A stretch of DNA of 64,000 nucleotides from Chloroflexota bacterium. Its GTDB lineage: Bacteria > Chloroflexota > Dehalococcoidia > Lucifugimonadales > Lucifugimonadaceae. Both the position numbers and the translations under genes were made by a program. The notes beneath the pieces were generated by a model. It saw only the letters and a program-made list of their open reading frames with translations. It did no database searches and was not told the origin of the DNA. Positions 34,718-35,200 of the stretch are shown one piece after another (the stretch's first letter is position 1; every line of letters starts with the position of its first letter). The stretch lies in the NCBI GenBank assembly GCA_009838175.1, contig VXSB01000040.1, positions 40,844 to 104,843 on the forward strand. Reading direction: 5' to 3'.

Positions 34718-35200
34718 ATGTCCGCAAAACTCCAACAGGGCGACCGCCTGCCGCAACTCAAATTCAAACTCGTCGACGGTGATGAACTCAACCTACCTCG
34801 CGGCATGTCATCCCGATACCTCGCCCTTCTTTTCTTCCGCGGCACCTGGTGAAGCTACTGCCGAAGGCAGCTAGTTAGCTACCAAGAGCGCCTTGACGAA
34901 CTCGAAGCCCTCGGTGCTGACATCATCGCCGCAACCGTCGGAACTCAAGATGAAGTCAAAGCCATGCGCGACGAACTTGGACTCACTTTCCCCGTCGCAT
35001 ACGGCCTCACCGAATCCGAGTTCGAACCACTCGGCGGATGGTGGACAACCGATCACCACGGCCGCTACATGCAACCAGTCGAACTCTTGATCTCACGCGG
35101 CGGCGTGGTCTTCGGCTCCATGTACGCCTCCGGCCCAGTCGGGCGAATGTCCGTCGACGAAGTCCTCGTCGCAATTAGGGGTCGGGAACAACGCAGTTAA
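34718..35200 (+). CDS. PRX_like2-type thioredoxin-fold protein with in-frame TGA (candidate selenocysteine, UxxC motif); split by the ORF track
   Basis: ATG at 34718, frame open except TGA at 34850-34852: MSAKLQQGDRLPQLKFKLVDGDELNLPRGMSSRYLALLFFRGTW-[TGA]-SYCRRQLVSYQERLDELEALGADIIAATVGTQDEVKAMRDELGLTFPVAYG...GREQRS*. The TGA sits exactly where the family's RGxWCxxC first Cys is expected. Confidence 0.85.
34853..34884 (+). promoter_or_regulatory. Candidate bacterial SECIS hairpin immediately 3' of the in-frame UGA
   Basis: GGCAGCT-AGTT-AGCTACC (34866-34883): stem with one C.A mismatch, apical loop AGTT (G in the first two loop bases) starting 20 nt after the UGA. Alternative fold CTGCC-GAA-GGCAG nested in AGCTA/TAGCT and TGGT/ACCA. 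Confidence 0.6.

What the first reader, a model, noticed from the sequence alone, without database searches (positions are those of the whole stretch)
34718..35200. Cryptic selenoprotein: PRX_like2/SelU-like redox protein with UxxC encoded by an in-frame TGA
Seen directly: an ATG-initiated frame reads through a single TGA (34850-34852) into a continuous C-terminal half. The TGA falls precisely at the first Cys position of the family's redox motif (RGTW-U-SYC-RRQL). The following 30 nt can form a hairpin (GGCAGCT-AGTT-AGCTACC, loop starting 20 nt after UGA, G in loop position 2) compatible with the published bacterial SECIS model. TGA is used as a normal stop elsewhere in the window, so recoding would be local. 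The ORF track reports only the 3' fragment, so automated annotation would call it a truncated gene or pseudogene. PRX_like2 is the fold family that includes eukaryotic SelU. Whether this organism has Sec machinery is not visible here.
Basis: partly seen in the sequence, partly recalled or inferred. Interest (0 to 1): 0.88.

Follow-up and report, generated by a model that had tools for sequence, protein, structure and literature searches.

The report
Unannotated UxxC selenoprotein of a Chloroflexota bacterium
A gene that ordinary gene-finding cuts in half at an internal TGA is, on comparative evidence, a real selenium-containing redox enzyme: the same TGA is kept in 82 of 100 distinct relatives, its RNA signal is conserved, and the genome carries the whole selenocysteine machinery, but it belongs to an already known kind of bacterial selenoprotein.

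Summary
Confirmed as a selenoprotein gene on comparative evidence. One TGA (34850-34852) interrupts an otherwise open 160-codon frame (34718-35200) at the first position of a UxxC motif. The genome encodes SelA, SelB, SelD (itself with an in-frame TGA) and tRNA-Sec(UCA). Of 100 distinct homologues read from DNA, 82 have TGA at exactly this codon, 17 TGT/TGC and 1 TCA. Both halves are under purifying selection. Sec forms outside the window's genus, unlike Cys forms, keep a covarying hairpin with an almost fixed loop G (CGGC-AGTTR-GCCG). selA is present in 34 of 36 sampled TGA-form genomes and 1 of 6 Cys-form genomes. The predicted fold is Prx/ResA-like: U45 sits where peroxiredoxins have Thr, C48 at their peroxidatic Cys. 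'SelU-like' is not supported. UxxC Prx-like selenoproteins (PF00578) are a listed class, so this is a new, database-truncated member of a known kind, in a Dehalococcoidia/SAR202-type lineage with at least seven further predicted Sec genes in the same genome.

The parts
34718..35200 (+). Complete selenoprotein gene, 160 aa with Sec45, AhpC-TSA/Redoxin fold, UxxC (U45-S-Y-C48)
34850..34852 (+). Sec-encoding TGA codon (residue 45)
   Evidence: TGA at this codon in 82 of 100 distinct homologues, Cys in 17, Ser in 1
34866..34883 (+). Proposed SECIS hairpin GGCAGCT-AGTT-AGCTACC (+14 to +31 after TGA; loop +21 to +24, G at +22)
   Evidence: Meets loop, 4-bp upper stem and spacing of the published model; stem third-codon positions +15, +18, +27, +30 invariant in 7 genus members while loop positions vary; weak alone, -4.4 kcal/mol
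34853..34876 (+). Competing upstream hairpin AGCUACUGCC-GAA-GGCAGCUAGUU, minimum-energy fold of the free RNA
   Evidence: -9.9 kcal/mol, loop only 10 nt from the TGA, outside the model's spacing
34712..34714 (+). In-frame TAG bounding the frame upstream
32965..34629 (+). Neighbour: SulP-family anion permease with STAS domain, immediately upstream on the same strand in all 7 genus members; possible operon partner, functional link inferred only

Best explanation
34718-35200 encodes a 160-aa Prx-like thiol oxidoreductase, with no signal peptide evident, whose first motif residue is selenocysteine (UxxC). Translation: SelB carrying Sec-tRNA(UCA) is recruited by the hairpin just downstream of the UGA and decodes it as Sec (strongly supported by comparative evidence; not shown biochemically). 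Chemistry (inferred): the Sec45 selenolate attacks a disulfide or peroxide substrate; the resulting intermediate is resolved by Cys48 as an internal Se-S bond, which a thioredoxin-type reductant reduces. Because C48 lies where peroxiredoxins carry the peroxidatic Cys but their Pro and Thr are missing, thiol:disulfide exchange of the ResA/Trx type is somewhat more likely than classical Prx catalysis. The lineage's main SECIS is CGGC-AGUUR-GCCG with its loop 16 nt after the UGA; in this genus it has moved 4 nt downstream. The confidence given is for the selenoprotein claim; the chemical role alone is about 0.6.
For: Sec machinery: SelB 331.9 bits, SelA 518.8, SelD 367.3 with its own in-frame TGA, tRNA-Sec with TCA anticodon 68.2 bits. 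Alternation: 82 U, 17 C, 1 S at the same codon in 100 distinct homologues; on the tree the labels need 6 changes, and a Cys clade is nested among Sec forms. Purifying selection on both sides of the TGA, dN/dS 0.09-0.34 upstream and 0.06-0.20 downstream. RNA constraint: in 75 Sec forms outside the genus, CAG 74/75 and Leu=TTR 74/75 against backgrounds of 68% and 18%; stem pair +12/+26 paired in 66/75 through G-C, U-A and C-G, no shuffle of 20,000 exceeding 47; G at +18 in 74/75 of these Sec forms, 4/18 Cys/Ser forms. The tandem Ser paralogue of G029 has TCA for TGA and lacks exactly the loop G (CAA for CAG). selA in 34/36 Sec-form and 1/6 Cys-form genomes, Fisher p = 1.4e-4. Fold model pLDDT 90, best PDB matches Bcp/Prx and ResA.
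Against: No Se labelling, mass spectrometry or expression data. In this genus the hairpin itself is -4.4 kcal/mol and a -9.9 kcal/mol hairpin competes; the published model asks for -7.5 or lower. The genome is a 66-contig draft, 91% complete. Shuffle counts do not correct for relatedness (48 representatives below 75% identity still give 39 paired). Substrate and reductant are unknown.
Confidence: 0.95

Rival explanations
1. Pseudogene: the TGA is a nonsense mutation or sequencing error in a former CxxC protein.
For: The plain ORF caller gives only a 3' fragment; databases hold many truncated records starting after the TGA.
Against: The same TGA in 82 distinct homologues from independently assembled genomes, low dN/dS on both sides, conserved RNA signal specific to TGA forms, co-occurrence with selA.
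Confidence: 0.01
2. TGA is read as tryptophan (code 4/25-like reassignment or leaky suppression) rather than as Sec.
For: Three database proteins carry W at this site (P0030 seen; P0032 and P0033 in the tree), probably because a gene caller used code 4 (inference).
Against: TGA also ends homologues of this gene in the lineage; the TGA sits at the redox Cys position, which alternates with Cys; tRNA-Sec with UCA anticodon present; downstream hairpin conserved only in TGA forms.
Confidence: 0.01
3. Two products: termination at the UGA is the main outcome and the 3' piece is translated on its own from an internal Met.
For: An internal ATG at 34964 exists; UGA recoding competes with termination in known systems (general knowledge).
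Against: The stretch between TGA and the internal Met is conserved too; in the model the strand before and the helix after U45 form one active site, so neither half is a complete fold.
Confidence: 0.02
4. A variant of the best explanation: a working peroxidase in which C48 is peroxidatic and Sec45 is the resolving residue, rather than a disulfide oxidoreductase.
For: C48 aligns with the peroxidatic Cys/Sec of the canonical Prxs of the same genome; best PDB matches are Bcp-type Prxs.
Against: The Prx Pro and Thr of PxxxTxxC are R41 and U45 here.
Confidence: 0.3

Closest known systems
Prx-like thiol:disulfide oxidoreductase selenoproteins, PF00578, UxxC (PMC13188914 Table 1, 'predicted with high confidence'); 'Prx-like 1' of the GOS survey, pfam00578 UxxC (PMC2398784 Table 2)
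   Same: Same Pfam family, Sec at the first position of UxxC, downstream bacterial SECIS, Cys homologues.
   Different: Not shown to be the same subfamily: their sequences were not compared here. This one is a Dehalococcoidia/SAR202-type clade with the motif [FY]RGxWUxYC.
Peroxiredoxin-like family, cd02970 (PRX_like2), listed with UxxS (PMC13188914)
   Same: Prx-like protein with a two-residue motif at the Prx active site.
   Different: UxxC here, not UxxS; cd02970 itself was not searchable.
SelL-related redox protein NF040769
   Same: Weak similarity over residues 11-86.
   Different: 23.9 bits against a cut-off of 120; one Sec, no UxxU.
Eukaryotic SelU / PRXL2 (FAM213)
   Same: General Prx-like thioredoxin fold with a Cys/Sec pair (from general knowledge).
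   Different: No match to the corresponding Pfam family up to E = 10.
ResA thiol-disulfide oxidoreductases and Bcp-type Prxs (solved structures)
   Same: Fold, about 2.3-3.3 A rmsd over most of the chain.
   Different: 14-22% identity; no membrane anchor or signal peptide evident here.

Membership tests
Bacterial selenoprotein | In-frame UGA aligned with a redox Cys of homologues | tested here: met
   82 U / 17 C / 1 S
Bacterial selenoprotein | Host encodes SelA, SelB, SelC, SelD | tested here: met
Bacterial selenoprotein | bSECIS: 3-9 nt loop with G in first two positions, 4-16 bp upper stem, 16-37 nt from UGA, MFE <= -7.5 (PMC13188914 Fig. 2) | tested here: inconclusive
   Geometry met in this gene (4-bp stem, loop AGTT, spacing 20); energy of that hairpin only -4.4. 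One relative's main-type hairpin evaluated at -7.8 (L046). Geometry is met somewhere in 60 nt by 79/82 Sec but also 10/17 Cys forms, so geometry alone is not specific; covariation and codon constraint are
Bacterial selenoprotein | Selenium in the purified protein | not testable with these tools
   needs experiment
Prx-like UxxC selenoproteins (PF00578) | AhpC-TSA domain over curated cut-off | tested here: met
   53.1 bits against 26
Prx-like UxxC selenoproteins (PF00578) | Sec at first position of UxxC | tested here: met
True peroxiredoxin | PxxxTxxC active site | tested here: not met
   R41 and U45 replace Pro and Thr; only C48 kept
SelU / PRXL2 | Match to the SelU-type AhpC-TSA_2 Pfam family | tested here: not met
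   no such match up to E = 10; HMMER's filters drop most matches above about 0.1
SelL-related NF040769 | Score over curated cut-off | tested here: not met
   23.9 against 120 bits
PRX_like2 cd02970 | Match to the CDD model | not testable with these tools
   CDD not available here

The most novel reading that the evidence does not exclude
This is a distinct, so far unnamed subfamily of UxxC selenoproteins fixed across a Dehalococcoidia/SAR202-type lineage, in which the SECIS element relocated within the coding sequence (from a loop at +17 to one at +21) while the protein motif stayed constant, and in which Sec was lost independently to Cys and Ser with measurable decay of the RNA signal: a natural series for studying how SECIS elements move and die.
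Probability: 0.5. Interest if true: 0.5.

Novelty: new member of a known kind. Interest (0 to 1): 0.36.

Why it matters
The gene and its many relatives are recorded in databases as truncated 'redoxin domain-containing' fragments or missed, so selenium use by these Chloroflexota is under-counted. The Sec/Cys/Ser series with matched presence and decay of the RNA signal is good material for testing bacterial SECIS rules.

Tried and rejected
A synonymous-codon shuffle of folding energy separated Sec from Cys forms only modestly (mean z -1.22 against -0.07), probably because the coding sequence TGC...GCA itself favours a hairpin; codon and pair statistics were used instead. Generic bSECIS geometry was too permissive as a test (10/17 Cys forms pass). 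The SelU label was dropped. The window was scanned for other TGA-interrupted frames with a U/C motif; only this gene stood out. Literature searches for selenoproteins of SAR202, Chloroflexota or Dehalococcoidia returned no title or abstract describing this gene, but only open-licence papers are held and the hits were not read in full.

Full report
What is there. The frame 34718-35200 is open from ATG to TAA except for one TGA at 34850-34852, which falls in FFRGTW-U-SYC. An in-frame TAG at 34712-34714 closes the frame upstream. Reading the TGA as a residue gives a 160-aa protein with AhpC-TSA (53.1 bits, cut-off 26) and Redoxin (44 bits, cut-off 26.6) matches. The ordinary ORF list has only the last 78 codons.

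Can the organism make selenocysteine? It has the genes. The window lies in a 2.64-Mb, 66-contig draft. It encodes SelB (C7, 331.9 bits), SelA (C8, 518.8 bits), SelD (C57, 367.3 bits, with one TGA, in SCAGUAGK) and a tRNA-Sec with anticodon TCA (C62; ARAGORN and Rfam agree).

Is the TGA kept? A read-through search of 76 genomes of the family found the orthologue with exactly one internal TGA in all seven genus members and in most other good matches. A scan of GTDB representatives brought named relatives: Chloroflexota MAGs labelled Dehalococcoidia or SAR202 cluster. Reading all of these from DNA, 100 distinct homologues have TGA (82), TGT/TGC (17) or TCA (1) at this exact codon; 78 of the 82 have no other TGA in the matched stretch and four have two. 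On a maximum-likelihood tree the residue labels need six changes, and the Cys proteins closest to ours, including one from a Thermoflexus MAG, lie nested among Sec proteins, which suggests Sec-to-Cys loss; rooting is uncertain and some inner branches are weak. dN/dS between genus members is 0.09-0.34 before the TGA and 0.06-0.20 after it.

Is there an RNA signal? Outside the window's genus, Sec forms carry almost fixed letters after the TGA: CGG CAG TTR GCC. Gln is CAG in 74 of 75 (68% elsewhere in the same genes), and Leu is TTA/TTG in 74 of 75 (18% elsewhere). Cys forms use mostly CAA and CTN. The letters form CGGC-AGTTR-GCCG, and the next pair, +12 with +26, is kept in 66 of 75 through G-C, U-A and C-G; 20,000 shuffles reached at most 47. 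Shuffling ignores relatedness; with one sequence per 75%-identity cluster, 39 of 48 still pair. The loop G at +18 is present in 74 of 75, but in 4 of 18 Cys/Ser forms. In genome G029 a tandem copy has TCA at the Sec codon and CAA where its Sec neighbour has CAG, a silent difference that removes precisely the loop G.

The genus of the window is different. [quoted passage not shown] PMC13188914). Third-codon positions within the stem (+15, +18, +27, +30) are invariant in all seven members, while only 17 of 81 other conserved-residue codons use a single codon; loop positions vary. But the hairpin alone is -4.4 kcal/mol, and the free RNA prefers an upstream hairpin of -9.9 kcal/mol. My inference is that a ribosome with the UGA in its A site covers the 5' arm of that competitor and frees the distal hairpin; this is not shown.

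Machinery and gene travel together: selA is found in 34 of 36 sampled genomes with the Sec form (the two misses are 76% and 82% complete) and in 1 of 6 with the Cys form, Fisher p = 1.4e-4, not corrected for relatedness. tRNA-Sec-like matches were also found in some Cys-form genomes, so loss of the trait there is not always complete.

What does it do? AlphaFold2 gives a confident single-domain model (pLDDT 90.4, pTM 0.87) whose best solved relatives are Bcp-type peroxiredoxins (TM about 0.84) and ResA thiol-disulfide oxidoreductases. Aligned with two canonical Prxs of the same genome, C48 occupies the peroxidatic position, U45 the conserved Thr and R41 the conserved Pro. So it is not a peroxiredoxin by motif. 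A thioredoxin-like UxxC mechanism, Sec attacking and Cys resolving, is the most likely, with disulfide or peroxide as substrate (inference). In all seven genus members the gene follows a SulP-type permease on the same strand; that pairing was not seen in the more distant loci examined, so no function is drawn from it.

Known or new? UxxC Prx-like selenoproteins of PF00578 are a listed class (PMC13188914 Table 1; PMC2398784 Table 2). No NCBIfam model names this subfamily over its cut-off, and many database entries are only the piece after the TGA, some named 'redoxin domain-containing protein'. It is therefore a new, unannotated member of a known kind.

Noticed in passing
G000:C45:22316-23859 (L054 about 3239-4900, minus strand): Three adjacent Prx-like genes, at least two with lipoprotein-like signal sequences, each with one TGA at the redox motif (FWUPYC, YWUGFC, FFUGIC): a tandem array of predicted selenoproteins, with similar TGA-bearing clusters in relatives (e.g. 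G005:C6:127845-129433)..
   Followed up: partly
G000:C57:9346-10269, L019: SelD is itself a predicted selenoprotein (SCAGUAGK)..
   Followed up: partly
G000:C9:18528-18923, C7:20602-20919, C34:26099-26464: Three more predicted selenoproteins: a Prx with Sec at the peroxidatic site (TGGU), a thioredoxin-like protein with YCUINC followed by a long C-terminal region, and a lipoprotein-like thioredoxin with YTUYNC. At least eight Sec genes in this genome in all..
   Followed up: partly
L034:2164 (G029): Tandem paralogue with Ser (TCA) at the Sec site and a decayed SECIS loop (CAA in place of CAG)..
   Followed up: yes
P0030, P0032, P0033: Database homologues with Trp at the Sec site, probably TGA translated under code 4 by a gene caller.
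   Followed up: no
window 36333-37067 (-): GPP34 (Golgi phosphoprotein 3 family) protein, 154 bits, near the locus.
   Followed up: no
window 35399-36330: A membrane-protein ORF overlapped by a longer ORF whose C-terminal part looks like a winged-helix regulator; both are matched in G002.
   Followed up: no
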